Of a stretch of 43,222 nt of DNA, positions 23,053 through 29,804 are shown one piece after another. The translations under genes were made by a program, and so were the position numbers. Source of the stretch: Syntrophomonas sp. (GTDB lineage: Bacteria; Bacillota; Syntrophomonadia; Syntrophomonadales; Syntrophomonadaceae); the NCBI GenBank assembly GCA_016841875.1, contig JAENYG010000026.1:1-43222 (forward strand). Direction: 5' to 3'. Under the pieces are notes generated by a model, which saw only the letters and a list, made by a program, of their open reading frames with translations, ran no database searches and was not told where the DNA came from. How positions within the stretch are numbered: the stretch's first letter is position 1; every line of letters begins with the position of its first letter.

Positions 23053-23127
23053 CTATAAGGTCGTTTAGTTTTTTCGGTCTGATAGGTGCACTATCGGAAG
23101 ATAAATAACCGCAACGGAGGGGTGGGG

Positions 23128-24012
23128 ATGCGCATACGGGGAAAAAGTATTAATTTATTTCTAATGGATGGCACAGCAAGTGGCCGCATCAAATGTACCC
23201 TGGCAAATTGGACGGGTTTGGCATATAAGATACCCCGCACTGAACTGGATAAATGTAAAGAACGGGATGATCTGAAGCAAAGCGGTGTTTATTTTCTTTT
23301 CGGAGTCTCTGATCTGACCGGAGAAAATGTAGTGTATATTGGTCAGGCCGGTGTTCGTAAAAACGGGGAGGGTATCCTCTTTCGGCTACAGGAACATAAG
23401 CGTAATCCGGATAAGGATTATTGGACTGAGGCGGTTGTTTTTACTACATCAAATAATTCTTTTGGTCCCACCGAAATCAGCTATCTTGAAAATCGGTTTT
23501 GCAACTTAGCTACTGAATCAAATCGGTATATTGTTAAGAATGGAAATGACCCAACTCCCGGGAATGTTACTGAAGAAAAGGAAAGTGAGCTGGAAGAGTT
23601 TATAGACTATGCCAAAATTGTGATGGGGACATTTGGACATAGAATATTTGAGCCAGTGGTAGAGATACCCCCTGAACCTTCCGTTGAACCGGTAAATACT
23701 GATGTTGAGCCTATACTCTATCTCAAAACGACGAAAGCGAATGCAAGAGGACGGAGAACTAATGAAGGATTTGTTGTTTTTAAAGATAGTACGGTTTCAA
23801 CAATTCCAACTAAGAGCTGCCCGGATACAATACTGCATTTACGAAAACTGTATGCGGAAAAGATTACAAATGATGTATTAACGGAGGATACTCTTTTCAA
23901 AAGTCCATCAGCTGCCGCAGGATTTGTAACCTATAGCAGCGCCAACGGATTGATTATGTGGATGACCGATGATGGCAGGACGTTAAAGGATATTGAAAAT
24001 GGTGAACCATAA
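23128..24012 (+). CDS. GIY-YIG nuclease-domain protein with C-terminal DUF4357
   Basis: The N-terminal half contains a GIY-YIG-like core: GVYFLFGVS, NVVYIGQAG, then RLQEHKRN and a glutamate in EISYLENRF. The C-terminal part (LKTTKANARGRRTNEGFVVF through the KSPSAAAGFV segment) matches DUF4357, a domain found on GIY-YIG and restriction-related proteins. It is probably a DNA-acting nuclease or a DNA-modification accessory. The open frame begins at GTG 23,086, but ATG 23,128 with GGAGG seven bases upstream is the better start (294 residues). It converges on the helicase gene, with a terminator between them. Its placement next to a defence operon suggests a defence role. Confidence 0.8.
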   Translation: MRIRGKSINLFLMDGTASGRIKCTLANWTGLAYKIPRTELDKCKERDDLKQSGVYFLFGVSDLTGENVVYIGQAGVRKNGEGILFRLQEHKRNPDKDYWTEAVVFTTSNNSFGPTEISYLENRFCNLATESNRYIVKNGNDPTPGNVTEEKESELEEFIDYAKIVMGTFGHRIFEPVVEIPPEPSVEPVNTDVEPILYLKTTKANARGRRTNEGFVVFKDSTVSTIPTKSCPDTILHLRKLYAEKITNDVLTEDTLFKSPSAAAGFVTYSSANGLIMWMTDDGRTLKDIENGEP

Positions 24013-24243: not shown

Positions 24244-26853
24244 TCAGTCAACGAACAACTCCGGTATGTTGTATTGAATATCGGCAATTTCCCTGCGGAC
24301 ACTGGCACTGGGACAATTGGCGAGGGAGCGGCGGAGTTTAATTTCTCCGTTCTGCATTTTAACGACATAATCATCTCTATGCCTTCTTATGTATGTAGAT
24401 GTTTCACGGGAGAATCCATTTCTTTGAAGGGTTATGGAGAGCGGGTTTGTGGTTCCGTATTCCACATACTCATACCAATCATTTTGGAATGCTTCTACCT
24501 TATGAAAACGTTTATACTCTGATGAAAATCTTAGGAAATAATTAGAAATGCTAAACAGAATTACATTTTCGATTGCCTTTAACGTATCGGAAATTACAAT
24601 ATTTCGGTGTGGAAGTGTGTCATCATAAGGGATCTGTTTTCCATTTACTCTAACTCCAGACAAGGGATGGTCACGTTTGTAATCAAGAGTTTGCTCCATA
24701 ATAAAGCTCAGGCCGGTTCCTTTAATCCATTGTGAGAGGATAACTGCATACCATCTTAATTTGCCGTGGGACCCATCTTTACTAACGAAGCCAAGTTCGG
24801 ATCGCTCGTATACTTCCCACTTAAAGATTTTGCAGAGTTCATCCAGAAAATCCACTAAAGCCCAATAGTCTACGTTTCCTCTTTCATCTATCGCTGGATA
24901 TTTTAGTCCGCTGGCGATGGCATCTTTTAGATTGTATGTCTGGTCAAGGGAAGTATTGATGTCATCATCGAGCTGATTTTCGCTATTGCTAAAAACCTCT
25001 TTAATCCTGGACACGGTAACCTCATCCAGTAACGGTGCAAATTCTCTCCAAACAAGGCTCATATTGCCTTTTATTATATCCCTTAAAAGAATAATGGCGA
25101 ATTTCCGCATTAAGGCGTATGAATCTACTGATTGTTTACTTGGGTGCCTAGGCAGCTCTACATTGCCATTTAAAAGGCTGTCCACTATTAATTGTTTTTG
25201 AGGTTTTGTTAATTCCGTTGCAAGAGACAGCTTTTGCTCCGGGACTTCCTGCTTTAATAGATTTAGAAATTCTTTAGTTTTAACTTTTTCTTCAAGCCGG
25301 ACAAGAAATACATTGCCGTAGAGGTTGTATTCAATCCGGCCAACACGGCCAATAAGGTTTTTGAAATCCACTGGGGTCATCTTTGCCTGCCCATTTTTAT
25401 AATGGGTTATAAATAAATTATCGGCAGGAAGATTAACCCCCTCAACCAAAGTGCTGGTACAAAACATAGTATGGATTAGGCCTTTACGGAACAATTCTTC
25501 AATGCGCATCCGAATGGTGGCGGGCAAATAACCGATGTGGTATGCTACACCTTTGGAAATCACATCTGCCAGGTAATAATCGCCGTGAACTTCATTCTTA
25601 ATATCCTGTGCTAAAGTTAGAAGCTCTTTATCATCGCTTTGGGGTTTATCTTCAGCGAATTCACGGGCAAAGCCTACAGCTTTATCGGTTCCACTACAAT
25701 AAATAATATTTTGGGTGTTCTTGCCAATGCGCCATATTAGTTGGCAAAATGTAGGCTCCTTATGAATATTGGCGACAGGGGTCAAGGTGCCACTGTATGT
25801 ATTGAATAGCTGTATCTCTTTACCTGGAAAATCAATTAAATATTTTATTTGACTTACCGGTGCAAATGTGGTTGCTAGTCTCTGCTCGGCTTCGGCCTCT
25901 GCACCAGGTATCAGTTTCAAATAGACTTCTGGGTTCGGTATGTTAGGTGATGCAAAGATGACTTTAGGTTTTCTTGCTCGTTGGCAGAGCATATCCACCA
26001 CCTTGTAATAAAATGTGCTACGGGGACCTTTGGAAGAAATTTTATGAGCCTCGTCTACAAACAGGTAGTCAACCTCAATATGTGGATTGTCGATTAGCAG
26101 GTACAACAACCGCTCCGGGGTTAGGACGAATATGAAATTATGATCCTGTTTTAACGACAATGCACCAGCTGAGGTTACAAGCCTGTAATTTTGTTCAGCC
26201 AGAAGTTCCTTTAAATCATTAATAATCCTGCTGGTCACTTCATTTATAAGGGCCTTGGTGGGTACTAATATGGCGAAGTTGCAAGCGATGCCGTCCATAA
26301 TCTGCTTTTTTATATACATACGCATTATGAAGGATTTCCCCATAGAGGTAGGCCCCGAATAGCTAAAATAAGGCTCATTTAAGCGGTCGTATACGGCCTT
26401 TTGAGAACGGAAGAATTGGTATTCAGGTTCAGCCGGGATGCTCAAAAGGTTTTTACTAAACTCGGCGTAAAACCAATCAAGTAAAGATTTATGCCGGTAG
26501 TTGGGGGTGGCCATTGCCATACCACGATAATTGCCGGTGCTTGAAAGCACTGAGCCCAGGTAAAATTCAACGGCGGGGTGTTCCGGCTCAATGGTTCGAA
26601 GGAGCGCAACTATCTCTTGGGCCATTATTTTATGTTTGTCGGCCTTATTGCAGTCAGTAGACTTCGATAGGATATCTGCAAACCTTAGTGCATCTTCAAT
26701 ATTAACAAGTTTCTTTTCTCTTTTTTTAAGGTTAAACAGTTTTATTGAGTAGTTGTACAATAGATTATCGTACAACTCGTTTAAGTAGGGGTCGTAATCA
26801 ATATTAGTGAAAATAGCAGCACCTAAATTGATACTTTCCTGATTACTCATCAT
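24244..26853 (-). CDS. hamB: HamB-like superfamily 2 DEAH helicase of a Hachiman defence module
   Basis: This 869-residue ATP-dependent helicase has its superfamily 2 motifs in order. Motif I is SGPTSMGKS (166-174), Ia VPTKALINE (197-205), Ib TPERLL (245-250), II DEAH (267-270), III ASPNIPNP, V TSTLVEGVNLPADN (467-480) and VI LIGRVGR (501-507). A long C-terminal region has no obvious further motif. In Hachiman, HamB binds HamA and senses DNA damage or phage DNA. The ATG overlaps the HamA-like stop (ATGA), and GGGGGAGGGG precedes it. It is last in the four-gene - strand operon. The assignment rests on the helicase being coupled to a DUF1837 gene; AbpB is the main alternative. Confidence 0.85.
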   Translation of the reverse strand: MMSNQESINLGAAIFTNIDYDPYLNELYDNLLYNYSIKLFNLKKREKKLVNIEDALRFADILSKSTDCNKADKHKIMAQEIVALLRTIEPEHPAVEFYLGSVLSSTGNYRGMAMATPNYRHKSLLDWFYAEFSKNLLSIPAEPEYQFFRSQKAVYDRLNEPYFSYSGPTSMGKSFIMRMYIKKQIMDGIACNFAILVPTKALINEVTSRIINDLKELLAEQNYRLVTSAGALSLKQDHNFIFVLTPERLLYLLIDNPHIEVDYLFVDEAHKISSKGPRSTFYYKVVDMLCQRARKPKVIFASPNIPNPEVYLKLIPGAEAEAEQRLATTFAPVSQIKYLIDFPGKEIQLFNTYSGTLTPVANIHKEPTFCQLIWRIGKNTQNIIYCSGTDKAVGFAREFAEDKPQSDDKELLTLAQDIKNEVHGDYYLADVISKGVAYHIGYLPATIRMRIEELFRKGLIHTMFCTSTLVEGVNLPADNLFITHYKNGQAKMTPVDFKNLIGRVGRIEYNLYGNVFLVRLEEKVKTKEFLNLLKQEVPEQKLSLATELTKPQKQLIVDSLLNGNVELPRHPSKQSVDSYALMRKFAIILLRDIIKGNMSLVWREFAPLLDEVTVSRIKEVFSNSENQLDDDINTSLDQTYNLKDAIASGLKYPAIDERGNVDYWALVDFLDELCKIFKWEVYERSELGFVSKDGSHGKLRWYAVILSQWIKGTGLSFIMEQTLDYKRDHPLSGVRVNGKQIPYDDTLPHRNIVISDTLKAIENVILFSISNYFLRFSSEYKRFHKVEAFQNDWYEYVEYGTTNPLSITLQRNGFSRETSTYIRRHRDDYVVKMQNGEIKLRRSLANCPSASVRREIADIQYNIPELFVD

Positions 26854-27785
26854 ACAACCCCTCCCCCTAGAAGATCGCTCATGATACTCAGTTTTTCACC
26901 GTCAGCATCGTTAAACGGTAGTATGTAAAAATAAAATGAATGGGCGCTTAAATTTTCCTCTTTGATTTTCTTCACGATGTAGGCGGAATGGGCTTTAATA
27001 TCTAAGTTCATTCTTCGCTTAATCTCTTTACGAAAGGCCTCATTGGAATAATTGTCAGCTATCAAGCCAAGTGAATAACCAAGGAACACTCCGAACGCCC
27101 TGTCCACCGGGGTGTTTTTTTGTTTGCCTGGAATGATGAGGTTCCTAAGATAATCGGTAGTTTGGGCGTCATAAGCTTGGGCGAATATAGTGCTTTCCAC
27201 GAGTCGTAGTTCCTCTGAAGGATTGTCCCTGATGGTAACAAGGGAATTAAAGGCATTATCGATAGCATCTTGCAAATCACCGATGATATTGGATTTCCCG
27301 AAAACCATCTGGTATGAAGGGATTTCACCATTTTTAAGGGGCAGTAAATGAACGCCGCCACCATTTTGGATATTGTGATTACCGAATTGCACCAGCTCTA
27401 TTTTGTTATACAGCTTTGGTGCGCCAAGTATCTGTTCCAAAAATATATACAGCATCACATCGCCCAGTTCCTCGCCAATCCAGCTATCATCCATATTGCA
27501 CACATTGCGTAACAAGCTGATGGCTTGGAAGGCTATGGTCTCGGAATCTCCTTCTACATGGAACTGCTCAATTTTGGCCCGTGAGTAGACATACCTACCG
27601 ATATTCCTACGAAGGAAACGGTGCAAGGCATCTAAAGAAAATGCACTGGTTCCTACATTCAAATGGAACATGCGTAACTGATGGGGATTTTTAAGTCCCA
27701 GTGATTCCGCATGCTCTACCTCTGTAAAAATGCCATCAAACCCAACTTCTAACAGACTTTTCTTTAATAACTGCACTTGCACCAC
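26850..27785 (-). CDS. hamA: HamA-like DUF1837 protein of a Hachiman module, catalytic residues apparently replaced
   Basis: The 311-residue protein follows the DUF1837 layout. It has GEELGDVMLYIFLEQ (104-118), APKLYNKIEL (122-131), GGGVHLLPL (142-150) and VFGKSNIIGDLQDAIDNAF (161-179). HamA proteins are PD-(D/E)xK nucleases that degrade DNA with HamB. The usual pattern, as I know it, has Asp before V/I-H and a Gly-Glu-x-Lys motif. Here these positions read G143, K164 and N166, so nuclease activity is doubtful. Start codons GTG 27,785, 27,782 and 27,776 are all possible; the last is best spaced from GGGGG. AbpA is an alternative DUF1837 member. Confidence 0.82.
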   Translation of the reverse strand: MVQVQLLKKSLLEVGFDGIFTEVEHAESLGLKNPHQLRMFHLNVGTSAFSLDALHRFLRRNIGRYVYSRAKIEQFHVEGDSETIAFQAISLLRNVCNMDDSWIGEELGDVMLYIFLEQILGAPKLYNKIELVQFGNHNIQNGGGVHLLPLKNGEIPSYQMVFGKSNIIGDLQDAIDNAFNSLVTIRDNPSEELRLVESTIFAQAYDAQTTDYLRNLIIPGKQKNTPVDRAFGVFLGYSLGLIADNYSNEAFRKEIKRRMNLDIKAHSAYIVKKIKEENLSAHSFYFYILPFNDADGEKLSIMSDLLGGGVV

Positions 27786-27804
27786 CCCCGCTTAAATTAT
27801 TAAT

Positions 27805-28026
27805 TTACGGTTGAGATTCTCTTCTTGTCGATATACCCTCGCTAGCTTCACCGGAACGAATCCACTCGTCAACCTCGGAAATTTTAAACTTCCACAATCT
27901 ACCCACCTTATAGGCAGGCATATTTCGTTTTGCTATCCATTGCAGAACTGTTTCTCTGCCGATACCCAAATATTCTTGTATTTCCCTTAATGTTGACCAT
28001 TTTTCTAAGTTGTCTTTTTTGTCCAT
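27805..28026 (-). CDS. Excisionase/MerR-type helix-turn-helix DNA-binding protein
   Basis: This 73-residue protein is of the excisionase-family DNA-binding type (HTH_17). It shows WSTLREIQEYLGIGRETVLQ (winged HTH), followed by WIAKRNMPAYKVGRLWKFKI and SEVDEWIRSG. Such proteins bind DNA as recombination directionality factors or as small repressors. It starts two bases after the NBR1-Ig gene stop, with GGAGG seven bases upstream, and ends 19 bases before the HamA-like start. A role as the operon's own regulator, acting on the palindrome at 29,111-29,127, is a reasonable inference. No integrase is next to it. Confidence 0.88.
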   Translation of the reverse strand: MDKKDNLEKWSTLREIQEYLGIGRETVLQWIAKRNMPAYKVGRLWKFKISEVDEWIRSGEASEGISTRRESQP

Positions 28027-28028
28027 TA

Positions 28029-28940
28029 CTAAACCTCCGATGCGGTATTAGGTGTGTTTATTACTGTAGCCAATACTTTTAATGCTTTGTTTTTATCGGG
28101 GAAACACAGGCGGCCAGTCTTATCTTTCATTTCCCATATAGATTCAAAGGTGCCTTCAAAATGACGGGCATCAAATTGTACAGTCAGAAATACTTCATCG
28201 CCGGGCCTGGTTTCGGGAACAGCAGCCGCTACATTCATAGCCTTAATTCTTGTTTTAGATTGATTGGTACACTCAAAAACCCTATCTACCCAGGTAACTG
28301 TGCCAGTATTTTTGATTGTCCATTGGTGGTCGAATTCCTCATAAAAGGTTACTTCATGGTTTTGGGCAGGATGCTCACCGATTAACTGCAGATCATCACC
28401 GGGGTAAAACGGTGAAAGATCTTCGGGGGTGATTTTTGCAGGGTCTTTAGGAGGATTATTTTGCAATTTATCAATAACATCTGGCAGCACAAAACTTACA
28501 TCATCATTTTGAGATATAGCAAATTCTATAAATTGCTCATAAAGCCCCTCAAAGACCACTGTTCTATCAGTAAGTTCGGGGACTTCGAATGAATCACACA
28601 ATTTTGGAAATACCCTGGAGGATATAGCAAAATTGCAATAAGCAATAAAGGTTTCCTTATTCTTGTTCCCTTGTATGTAAGTCTTTATTGGTGATGAAAG
28701 ACCGCTGTATTTTTTGCTGCCGCCATATAATCTCTTCCGATATGTGGGATCGTCTCCAGTCAATCCTGTTGGCAGGAAGGAACTGCATCTGAAATCTCTA
28801 TTTTTATTTGATGACTCCTGGTTCGATCCGGCGGGATTAGTTTCACCACAAAGCGCAGAGAAAATCTCTAGTACAAACTGCCCTTGGTTGGAACAAGGGA
28901 AGTGTTTATATAATTTTCTAATAAACTCGCAGAAGCGCAT
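28029..28940 (-). CDS. NBR1-Ig-like domain protein, first gene of the Hachiman-type operon
   Basis: This 303-residue protein has two parts. Residues 1-165 form an unrecognised helical, cysteine-containing domain (FCEFIRKLYKHFPCS, then FEGLYEQFIEFAIS). Residues about 178-296 match the NBR1-Ig-like (Ig_NBR1) beta-sandwich: HQWTIKNTGTVTWVDRVF (206-223), VPETRPGDEVFLTVQF (241-256) and ESIWEMKDKTGRLCFPD (266-282). The conserved Trp residues W207, W217 and W269 are present. In eukaryotes this fold binds autophagy cargo; in bacteria its role is not established. There is no signal peptide. AGGGGG lies about nine bases before the ATG. Leading a Hachiman operon, it may be a sensor, adaptor or effector. 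Confidence 0.75.
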   Translation of the reverse strand: MRFCEFIRKLYKHFPCSNQGQFVLEIFSALCGETNPAGSNQESSNKNRDFRCSSFLPTGLTGDDPTYRKRLYGGSKKYSGLSSPIKTYIQGNKNKETFIAYCNFAISSRVFPKLCDSFEVPELTDRTVVFEGLYEQFIEFAISQNDDVSFVLPDVIDKLQNNPPKDPAKITPEDLSPFYPGDDLQLIGEHPAQNHEVTFYEEFDHQWTIKNTGTVTWVDRVFECTNQSKTRIKAMNVAAAVPETRPGDEVFLTVQFDARHFEGTFESIWEMKDKTGRLCFPDKNKALKVLATVINTPNTASEV

Positions 28941-29110
28941 CCTTTGTTCCCCCTCTCCCTACTATGAATTTACAAAGTGTCCCCAAAAAGTCCCCTTTTC
29001 CCGTCAGAAATACCCCTGATTGCTCTCCTTACAATTGAAGCTTGTCCCGCCATAATTAACTTATAGGACATCCAAGGGGGTGAATACACCACAAAAACCT
29101 TCTAATTAAT
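28941..29110 (-). other. Leader of the Hachiman-type operon
   Basis: About 170 bases separate the candidate promoter from the NBR1-Ig start. The segment is rich in short G runs when read on the - strand. A 33-codon frame (29,071 to 28,970, - strand) is present but lacks a ribosome site. No tRNA or clear riboswitch fold was seen. Confidence 0.3.
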
Positions 29111-29127
29111 TTATTGTATCACAATAA
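29111..29127 (-). promoter_or_regulatory. Extended -10 promoter overlapping a 7-3-7 palindrome (operator candidate)
   Basis: The 17 bases TTATTGTATCACAATAA are a perfect 7-bp inverted repeat with a 3-base spacer. On the - strand the same bases contain TGATACAAT, an extended -10 element (TG-N-TACAAT). No good -35 is seen, which is normal for extended -10 promoters. The arrangement suggests a repressor site blocking the promoter of the four-gene operon. Confidence 0.45.
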
Positions 29128-29286: not shown

Positions 29287-29330
29287 AAATAGTCGTGCCC
29301 TTTTTCTCGCTGAGGAAAGGGGCTTATTTT

Positions 29331-29804
29331 ATGTTCAGGAAGTTCAAAACCAGTAAAAAGAAGCGCACCAACTACATTTATTACGGCGAGGGTAGCAGCA
29401 AGACAGTATTAATACCGGGTGAGGATGGCGTTACAGAAGCAATTATTGAAACCCTGCACAGCCTCGATGATGAGGAAGTTGACAACGATCGCCGGGAAAC
29501 GAGAAGGCACAGCAATTTTGATGACCTAAACGACAAGGCGGAAATTCTCACTGATCCGGACAGTGACGTAGAAGATCGAATCATTTCTGCGCTAGAACGG
29601 GAGAGAGCCAAAACAATAGTAGATAATGCTATCTCTACTTTAAAGCCAAGGGAACAAAACATTATCAAGTGGCTTTATCTATCGGACAGCCCCCTATCTC
29701 AAGCTGAAGTTGGAGAACGACTTGGAATAGCGGAGGACAGTGTTAAAAAAAGTGCTTTTCGGATTAGGAAAAAGTTAAAAGAAATTCTCCAAGGCAAAAT
29801 TTAA
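29331..29804 (+). CDS. Sigma-70 region-4-like phage regulator
   Basis: The C-terminal half is a sigma region 4 helix-turn-helix: TLKPREQNIIKWLYLSDSPL, then SQAEVGERLGIAEDSVKKSA and FRIRKKLKEIL. The N-terminal half is basic, then strongly acidic (DDEEVDNDRRE, DPDSDVEDR), with no region 2. It is therefore likely a small phage transcription regulator rather than a complete sigma factor. The frame opens at 29,295, but ATG 29,331 has AAAGGGG eight to nine bases before it (157 residues). It is the first + strand gene after the defence operon. Confidence 0.78.
   Translation: MFRKFKTSKKKRTNYIYYGEGSSKTVLIPGEDGVTEAIIETLHSLDDEEVDNDRRETRRHSNFDDLNDKAEILTDPDSDVEDRIISALERERAKTIVDNAISTLKPREQNIIKWLYLSDSPLSQAEVGERLGIAEDSVKKSAFRIRKKLKEILQGKI

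What the first reader, a model, noticed from the sequence alone, without database searches (positions are those of the whole stretch)
24244..28940. Hachiman-type operon extended by an NBR1-Ig-like protein and an excisionase-type HTH
Seen: four - strand genes with gaps of 2 and 19 bases and a 4-base overlap, coding for an NBR1-Ig-like protein, an HTH protein, a DUF1837 protein and a DEAH helicase. Known: DUF1837 plus helicase (HamA, HamB) is Hachiman, usually described as a two-gene system. Inference: the two extra genes belong to the system, with the HTH as regulator and the NBR1-Ig protein as sensor, adaptor or effector. I do not know of a described Hachiman variant of this form.
Basis: partly seen in the sequence, partly recalled or inferred. 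Interest (0 to 1): 0.82.

Follow-up and report, generated by a model that had tools for sequence, protein, structure and literature searches.

The report
Prophage Hachiman variant with dead nuclease
A bacterial prophage carries a four-gene relative of the Hachiman anti-phage system whose nuclease has lost its catalytic residues; the same two leading genes, probably a regulator pair, stand in front of it in many related phages, often with a swappable restriction-modification set in between.

Summary
The four genes are real and placed as described. The two extra genes belong to this kind of Hachiman: in the two HamA scans every locus whose upstream side could be read (30 of 30, 3 of them duplicates) has NBR1-Ig then HTH in front; in 10 canonical HamA loci neither was detected. 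Two fused dead-HamA loci found by other searches lack NBR1-Ig. Three things change the reading. (1) HamA lacks the nuclease motif (G143, K164, N166 for D, E, K), as do all 31 relatives aligned; 10 of 10 canonical ones keep ExK. (2) Most relatives hold a type I or III restriction-modification set between HTH and hamA; the window is an 'empty' version. (3) The leader before NBR1-Ig usually holds three direct repeats at fixed spacing whose word differs between loci (20 of 27 score >=20/24; 0 of 200 other genes), weak in the window. Most likely NBR1-Ig/HTH is the regulatory front of a prophage defence operon ending in a dead-HamA/HamB sensor. The effector in the window is unknown. New variant of a known kind.

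The parts
28029..28940 (-). NBR1-Ig (FW-domain) protein, 303 aa; residues 1 to about 171 a helical N-terminal domain, about 180-297 an FW (NBR1/ILRUN) beta-sandwich
   Evidence: PF16158 E 4.5e-9; Z 13-14 to FW domains; N-terminal domain modelled in the relative L003: helical, pLDDT 85.5
27805..28026 (-). 73-aa excisionase-type HTH_17 (MAD1-like) DNA-binding protein
   Evidence: DNA-reading segment nearly invariant in the 24 loci shown
26850..27785 (-). HamA (DUF1837) without the nuclease motif: G143, K164 and N166 in place of D, E and K
24244..26853 (-). HamB, Ski2-like DEAH helicase; Walker A (GPTSMGKS) and DEAH read in the translation
28974..28995 (-). two tandem 11-base direct repeats (GGGGACTTTTT, GGGGACACTTT) in the leader; marginal on their own (8 of 10 positions, P 0.054)
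   Evidence: leaders of relatives
29113..29118 (-). TACAAT, candidate -10 element of the leader promoter (by analogy with TATAAT in relatives; not among the sites of the promoter scan)
29295..29804 (+). divergent sigma-70 region-4-like gene facing the operon (neighbour; 23 of 30 relatives have such a gene or DUF2800/DUF2815/PolA there)
23086..24012 (+). DUF4357 protein (PADLOC PDC-S14), convergent neighbour, not in the operon; its homologue follows hamB on the same strand in L024, L025, L035 and L068

Best explanation
This is the minimal form of a prophage-borne defence operon with a fixed frame: NBR1-Ig gene and HTH gene in front, dead-HamA and HamB at the end, and an exchangeable restriction-modification set between them in most relatives. 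Shown here: the conserved frame, the loss of the HamA nuclease residues, the exchange of the middle set, and locus-specific direct repeats before the NBR1-Ig gene in most relatives. Inferred: the N-terminal domain of the NBR1-Ig protein binds those repeats and sets expression of the operon; the FW domain is the part that receives a signal or a partner (HTH protein, HamAB or a phage product); the HTH protein, whose DNA-reading part hardly varies, is the second regulator; HamB with dead HamA keeps the DNA-damage sensing of Hachiman but passes it on instead of cutting. What then kills or arrests in the window, where there is neither a fused effector nor a restriction set, is open.
For: Frame: 14 of 14 evaluable loci (6 of 20 cut by contig ends) and, 16 of 16, have NBR1-Ig then HTH upstream of hamA on the same strand. 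Between HTH and hamA: type I (HsdM and HsdR recognised) in 19, type III-like in 7, nothing in 4 of these 30. Exchange: L051/L053 and L045/L046 have HamA 99% and 96% alike and NBR1-Ig domains 86-89% alike but HsdM/HsdR of different families. Dead HamA: 31 of 31, copies included. Repeats: 20 of 27 leaders score >= 20 of 24, 22 of 27 P <= 0.01; 0 of 200 other genes of these loci reach 20. The words follow the N-terminal domain (Mantel p 0.004), not the HTH (p 0.156). Two proteins with a weakly related N-terminal domain but another C-terminus (CTD6 in L099; unassigned in L130) have three perfect repeats before the start, spaced 10+10 and 10+12 (P 0.005 each in a wider scan of 20 spacings); the same scan finds none in the dead-HamA operons without the domain, L069 and L095 (P 0.65, 0.26, 0.07). 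Identities over 406 locus pairs: NBR1-Ig domains with HTH 0.75 and 0.81, HamA with HamB 0.85, across the two pairs 0.46-0.66.
Against: In the window the repeats are weak (any-word test P 0.91, triple test P 0.18 and, in the wider scan, 0.36; tandem test P 0.054). Word likeness also correlates with HamB (0.42, p 0.001), FW (0.26, p 0.007) and HamA (0.21, p 0.02), so kinship explains part of it; partial correlation with the N-terminal domain given HamB is 0.23, and the words were registered by hand. The spacings were chosen. The N-terminal domain matches no HTH family and no solved fold well (best Z 2.9). The repeats probably lie in the transcript, so RNA binding is as possible as DNA binding. 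The L099 and L130 links are weak (E 2.4e-4 and 2.3e-3 per genome; hhalign 95% for L099). Locus pairs are not independent. No expression, binding or phage data exist.
Confidence: 0.48

Rival explanations
1. NBR1-Ig is a working subunit: an adaptor or effector that the dead HamA-HamB complex switches on, with the FW domain as the docking part and the helical domain as the acting part, standing in for the lost HamA nuclease.
For: Dead HamA needs another effector; in published variants dead HamA is fused to a nuclease or a protease (PMC12278908, passages; PMC12799240, passages). NBR1-Ig is present in all 30 evaluable loci, 28 of them without the TIR fusion, and the two loci with another N-terminal extension on HamA, L069 and L095, lack it. 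A related N-terminal domain is joined to the ABC-3C domain CTD6 in L099.
Against: TIR-dead-HamA loci L024/L025 and L068 have a likely effector and keep NBR1-Ig. No residue in the N-terminal domain looks catalytic (invariant only F and Q in 18 sequences). NBR1-Ig varies with the HTH more than with HamA/HamB, and the leader repeats go with it.
Confidence: 0.26
2. A plain Hachiman pair with two passenger genes of prophage regulation; NBR1-Ig and HTH only set lysogenic expression and have no special link to HamAB.
For: In 23 of 30 loci a sigma-like gene or DUF2800/DUF2815/PolA genes lie divergently upstream, the same prophage position (in L027, L029, L038 and L048 none was recognised, in L019, L026 and L037 little sequence is held); HTH relatives stand before unrelated genes.
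Against: NBR1-Ig of this family was not seen without hamA where the contig went on (11 of 11 viral contigs). The fused dead-HamA locus L069 is at the same phage place but has neither gene. HamA itself is dead, so this is not a plain pair.
Confidence: 0.19
3. The window copy is a decaying remnant: an operon that lost its restriction set and its effector and no longer defends.
For: No R-M genes or fused effector in the window operon; HamA even lost the D that many relatives keep; leader repeats weak.
Against: All four frames are open; the same layout without a set in between recurs in L019/L020 (HamA 87% alike), L039 and L050, though L050 has an HsdM after hamB and the contigs of L019, L020 and L039 end soon after hamB or in it.
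Confidence: 0.07

Closest known systems
Hachiman HamAB (E. coli ECOR31; PMC12278908, passages seen)
   Same: DUF1837 HamA directly followed by a Ski2-like helicase HamB
   Different: HamA catalytic D-E(X)K absent; two extra leading genes; in most relatives an R-M set inside the operon
AbpAB (PMC12278908, passages), and HamMAB, protease-dead-HamA with HamM nuclease (PMC12799240, passages seen)
   Same: HamA domain without its catalytic residues, kept next to HamB
   Different: there the effector or its activator is fused to HamA; in the window HamA is unfused and no effector is recognisable
TIR-dead-HamA operons found here (L008/L024, contig lengths of Syntrophomonas zehnderi OL-4; L068)
   Same: same NBR1-Ig and HTH front and same phage site
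   Different: TIR_2 domain fused to HamA (E 5e-10 for L008; L068 by likeness) and a type I R-M set; both absent in the window
MADS (methylation-associated defence system) MAD1
   Same: small excisionase-type HTH gene; 65 bits to NF047737
   Different: below the curated cut-off of 80; no methyltransferase in the window operon
NBR1/ILRUN FW domain
   Same: fold and Pfam family
   Different: bacterial protein with a helical N-terminus of its own

Membership tests
Hachiman (canonical) | HamA with DUF1837 next to a Ski2-like helicase HamB | tested here: met
Hachiman (canonical) | HamA nuclease motif D-(G)E-x-K | tested here: not met
   G143, K164, N166; 8 canonical HamA in the same alignment, and L096/L097, keep ExK
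Hachiman (canonical) | two-gene locus | tested here: not met
   four genes, the frame conserved in relatives
Hachiman (canonical) | protection against phage, DNA-damage sensing | not testable with these tools
   no assay
Dead-HamA Hachiman variants (AbpAB, HamMAB) | HamA domain without catalytic residues beside HamB | tested here: met
Dead-HamA Hachiman variants (AbpAB, HamMAB) | domain fused to the N-terminus of HamA | tested here: not met
   window HamA is 311 aa with no extension
FW-domain (N_BRCA1_IG) proteins | PF16158 over its cut-off and FW fold | tested here: met
   37.3 bits against 28; Z 13.2-13.8
MADS | MAD1 over the curated cut-off | tested here: not met
   65 bits against 80
Restriction-modification composite operon | methyltransferase and restriction genes between HTH and hamA | tested here: not met
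   absent in the window; present in 26 of 30 evaluable relatives
XRE-type repressor | HTH in the N-terminal domain of NBR1-Ig | tested here: inconclusive
   no Pfam HTH match in 18 members; hhalign 0.7% to an alignment of three XRE-type proteins

The most novel reading that the evidence does not exclude
A phage-borne defence 'chassis': a regulator with a fast-changing N-terminal domain, matched to its own locus-specific operator repeats, plus a conserved HTH, controls interchangeable restriction-modification sets that are backed by a nuclease-dead HamA-HamB damage sensor. The private operator would keep each prophage's defence operon under its own control when several related prophages share a cell, and dead HamAB would act as a relay for other effectors, not as a nuclease.
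Probability: 0.35. Interest if true: 0.8.

Novelty: new variant of a known kind. Interest (0 to 1): 0.62.

Why it matters
It shows an unfused HamA that has lost its catalytic residues across a whole group, which makes the open question raised for AbpAB (why keep a dead HamA) testable without a fused effector. It ties an NBR1-type FW domain, known from selective autophagy, to phage defence. And the leader repeats, with a nearly constant geometry but a changing word, give a direct handle on how prophages keep their defence operons under separate control. PADLOC's models call this locus Hachiman, which suggests an active nuclease that the sequence does not support.

Tried and rejected
NBR1-Ig as the Hachiman effector: kept as a rival; weakened because TIR-dead-HamA loci keep it and no catalytic residues are conserved. 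NBR1-Ig bound to one R-M type: rejected, near-identical fronts precede different type I sets. HTH as reader of the leader repeats: disfavoured, its DNA-reading segment is nearly invariant while the words change. An inverted repeat right after the HTH stop (GTCC-N-GGACA) was found in 11 of 32 loci tested (27 with an R-M set in between, 5 without), chance 0-2% each by mononucleotide shuffles; absent in the window and in the six type III-like loci tested; its pattern was fitted after seeing the sequences, so it is only a lead. The first repeat test without fixed spacing gave P <= 0.05 in 18 of 24 loci and failed in window (0.91), L014, L028, L037, L040 and L043; the fixed-spacing test used spacings chosen after and gave no P <= 0.01 in window, L014, L037, L038 and L040. 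In L014, L037 and L038 a wider stretch shows the word several times at other spacings, read by eye; L040 has two exact 11-base tandem copies (P 0.002). Fold searches with the N-terminal domain gave nothing usable (the best of two rows with Z >= 2 was a SaPI repressor at Z 2.9); a fold not listed is not excluded. The N-terminal-domain profile also gave three weak matches (E 0.004-0.006, L127-L129); L127 and L128 were looked at and taken as chance, L129 was not looked at. HamA search in viral contigs with the window protein alone found nothing. NBR1-Ig searches gave 1 plasmid and 2 phage records; the Gordonia plasmid hit is another architecture (HTH_31 plus FW). NBR1-Ig in 398 genomes: window and G192 with hamA, a fragment at a contig end in G363, and the CTD6 protein in G341. 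Literature: NBR1 with Hachiman 0 papers; the listings (0 papers) showed no title or abstract that describes this operon; only open-licence PMC papers are held, and no paper was read whole.

Bias and weak points: the HamA query alignment A3 held 5 sequences, 3 of them from loci reached through NBR1-Ig viral scans and one (G005) through the NBR1-Ig genome search; the scan itself did not use NBR1-Ig, but more distant HamA were reached only by family or protein search. Loci are not independent: L025 is a second copy in one genome, L047 and L048 repeat L030 and L038, and others are close kin (L019/L020, L028/L029). In the tree the label NBR1 was given to every non-canonical row but four (L058, L095, L096, L097), also to L021, L022 and L036 whose upstream side is not held; that set as such has support 40/19 only, and the wider dead-HamA fork 93/93 is below the star.
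Full report
OBSERVATION. Family matches are clear: N_BRCA1_IG, HTH_17, HamA and a DEAD/DEAH helicase, with PADLOC HamA and HamB at 372 and 1145 bits. The model of the NBR1-Ig protein (mean pLDDT 82.7) has an FW beta-sandwich at residues 180-297 (Z 13.8 to ILRUN and 13.2 to NBR1) and a helical N-terminal domain. The genes to the right, from 29.3 to about 40 kb, are phage replication genes read the other way, so the operon is most likely prophage cargo.

IS THE PAIRING REAL? NBR1-Ig then HTH stand upstream of hamA on the same strand in 14 of 14 evaluable genome loci (L021, L022, L031, L032, L034 and L036 are cut by the contig end) and 16 of 16 viral loci; three of these 30 are duplicates (L025, L047, L048) and others are close kin. 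In the converse direction, NBR1-Ig queries on viral contigs gave 18 contigs, many of them the same as; 11 reach far enough to show hamA and all 11 have it (one cut after 81 residues), 7 end inside the operon. Phage record PV036460 has the full operon with a type III-like set; MT838594 ends in HsdS. In 398 genomes the NBR1-Ig profile matched the window and G192, both with hamA, a fragment at a contig end (G363) and a protein with another C-terminus (G341). Outside the group the genes were not detected: of the 10 HamA genes found besides the window's in 299 genomes of the phylum, 8 are canonical and have neither gene, one (G192, L068) is a TIR-dead-HamA with both, and one (G298, L069) is a fused dead-HamA with neither; two plasmid HamA loci, L096 and L097, also have neither. 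In phage record MT835668 (L095) a fused dead-HamA has an HTH and a LlaJI-like R-M set but no NBR1-Ig. So the rule holds for the loci reached by the HamA scans, with two exceptions among fused dead-HamA found otherwise.

WHAT SITS BETWEEN. Of the 30 loci, 19 have a type I set (HsdM and HsdR recognised), 7 a type III-like set (N6_N4 methylase plus ResIII helicase; L028 by Pfam, L029, L038 and L048 by 65-96% likeness to it; L014 by Pfam and L030, L037 and L047 by likeness to its genes) and 4 nothing between HTH and hamA (L019, L020, L039, L050; in L050 an HsdM follows hamB). The window is of the empty kind. L051/L053 and L045/L046 (HamA 99% and 96%, NBR1-Ig domains 86-89% alike) carry HsdM/HsdR of different families: the set is exchanged while its flanks stay.

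HamA IS DEAD. In the alignment the 8 canonical HamA keep ExK (7 as GExK); the 29 full-length sequences of the group, window and copies included, and L057 and L058 have FG-[K/A/S/T/I]-S-[not K]. In the window D, E and K are replaced by G143, K164 and N166; many relatives keep the D. Two actinobacterial plasmid HamA that join the group in the tree keep D and FGESK. The tree puts the dead-HamA rows together with support 93/93 (below the star), among long outgroup branches; the NBR1-Ig-bearing rows alone have 40/19, so one origin of the pairing is neither shown nor excluded. Published dead-HamA variants carry a fused domain: AbpA a Cap4-like nuclease (PMC12278908, passages), HamMAB a protease (PMC12799240, passages). 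Two lineages here carry a fused TIR (L008 by Pfam; L068 by likeness). The window HamA has no fusion, so its effector is unknown.

THE FRONT MODULE. Identities over 406 pairs of loci, not independent, show two pairs that vary together: NBR1-Ig with HTH (N-terminal domain-HTH 0.75, FW-HTH 0.81) and HamA with HamB (0.85), against 0.46-0.66 across. Window and L019/L020 are 87% alike in HamA, 89% in HTH, 77-78% in FW but 20% in the N-terminal domain; the window's N-terminal domain is nearest to that of L040 (51%): the domain has been exchanged. The HTH is generic: relatives at E <= 1e-12 occur in 20 of 299 genomes, window and G192 included, with HsdM (L103, L119), Fic (L105) or SNF2/ResIII helicase (L114) genes beside them.

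LEADER REPEATS. Before NBR1-Ig most loci have three copies of a short word 9 and 11 or 12 bases apart, near the ribosome-binding site; the word differs between loci (for example GGTACA, AGGACT, GGGACT, GGTTCT). Twenty of 27 loci score 20 or more of 24 and 22 of 27 have P <= 0.01; 0 of 200 other genes of the same loci reach 20 and 3 reach 18. The spacings were chosen after a first look; the earlier test without them gave P <= 0.05 in 18 of 24. Word likeness follows the N-terminal domain (Spearman 0.36, Mantel p 0.004) and not the HTH (0.12, p 0.156), but also HamB (0.42, p 0.001), FW (0.26, p 0.007) and HamA (0.21, p 0.02). In the window only two tandem copies are seen (28974-28995, P 0.054).

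MECHANISM. The best reading is a regulatory front (NBR1-Ig with its own operator, plus HTH) on a prophage defence operon ending in a dead-HamA/HamB relay; confidence 0.48. The layout and the loss of catalytic residues are shown; operator binding, signal reception by FW and relay by HamAB are inferred. Rivals are an adaptor/effector role of NBR1-Ig (0.26), passenger regulators (0.19) and decay (0.07).

NOVELTY. No paper in the held library joins NBR1 and Hachiman, and the listings show none that describes the layout; that library is not complete. New variant of a known kind.

The two fused dead-HamA exceptions, the tree support, the other significant correlations and the window's failed repeat tests are now told in the main text; the confidence moved from 0.50 to 0.48 and two rivals up by 0.01 for that reason.

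Noticed in passing
L099:1998-2981 (-): A 327-aa protein joins a domain weakly related to the NBR1-Ig N-terminus with CTD6 of ABC three-component systems (PF20282 E 2.9e-42), beside the same phage genes and with three perfect 10-base-spaced repeats before the start.
   Followed up: partly
L130:2428-3492 (-): A 354-aa protein with a weakly related N-terminus and an unassigned C-terminus, three perfect TGCCTACAT-type repeats before it, followed on the same strand by a small XRE-like gene and two genes that look like methylases by eye.
   Followed up: partly
leaders of NBR1-Ig genes, e.g. L008, L042, L045, L051 (read by eye): At the place where the window has ATG, several relatives have ATA or ATC behind a good ribosome-binding site; an in-frame GTG inside that site is the nearest usual start, and in L042 a stop codon excludes it. 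Possible use of rare start codons.
   Followed up: no
L035, L045, L068 leaders (read by eye): A possible hairpin with a similar loop and varying stem lies between the promoter and the repeats.
   Followed up: no
after the HTH stop in 11 of 32 loci: Inverted repeat GTCC-N(6-9)-GGACA, a possible second operator before the R-M set; absent in the window.
   Followed up: partly
window 23086-24012 (+): DUF4357 gene (PADLOC candidate PDC-S14) convergent with hamB; in L024, L025, L035 and L068 its homologue follows hamB on the same strand.
   Followed up: partly
L069:9756-11231 and L095:14454-15929: Dead-HamA with an N-terminal extension of about 190 aa without a Pfam match, no NBR1-Ig gene detected.
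   Followed up: no
L035:10010-13478: hamA and hamB are each split into two frames in Caproiciproducens galactitolivorans, with a type I set still upstream.
   Followed up: no
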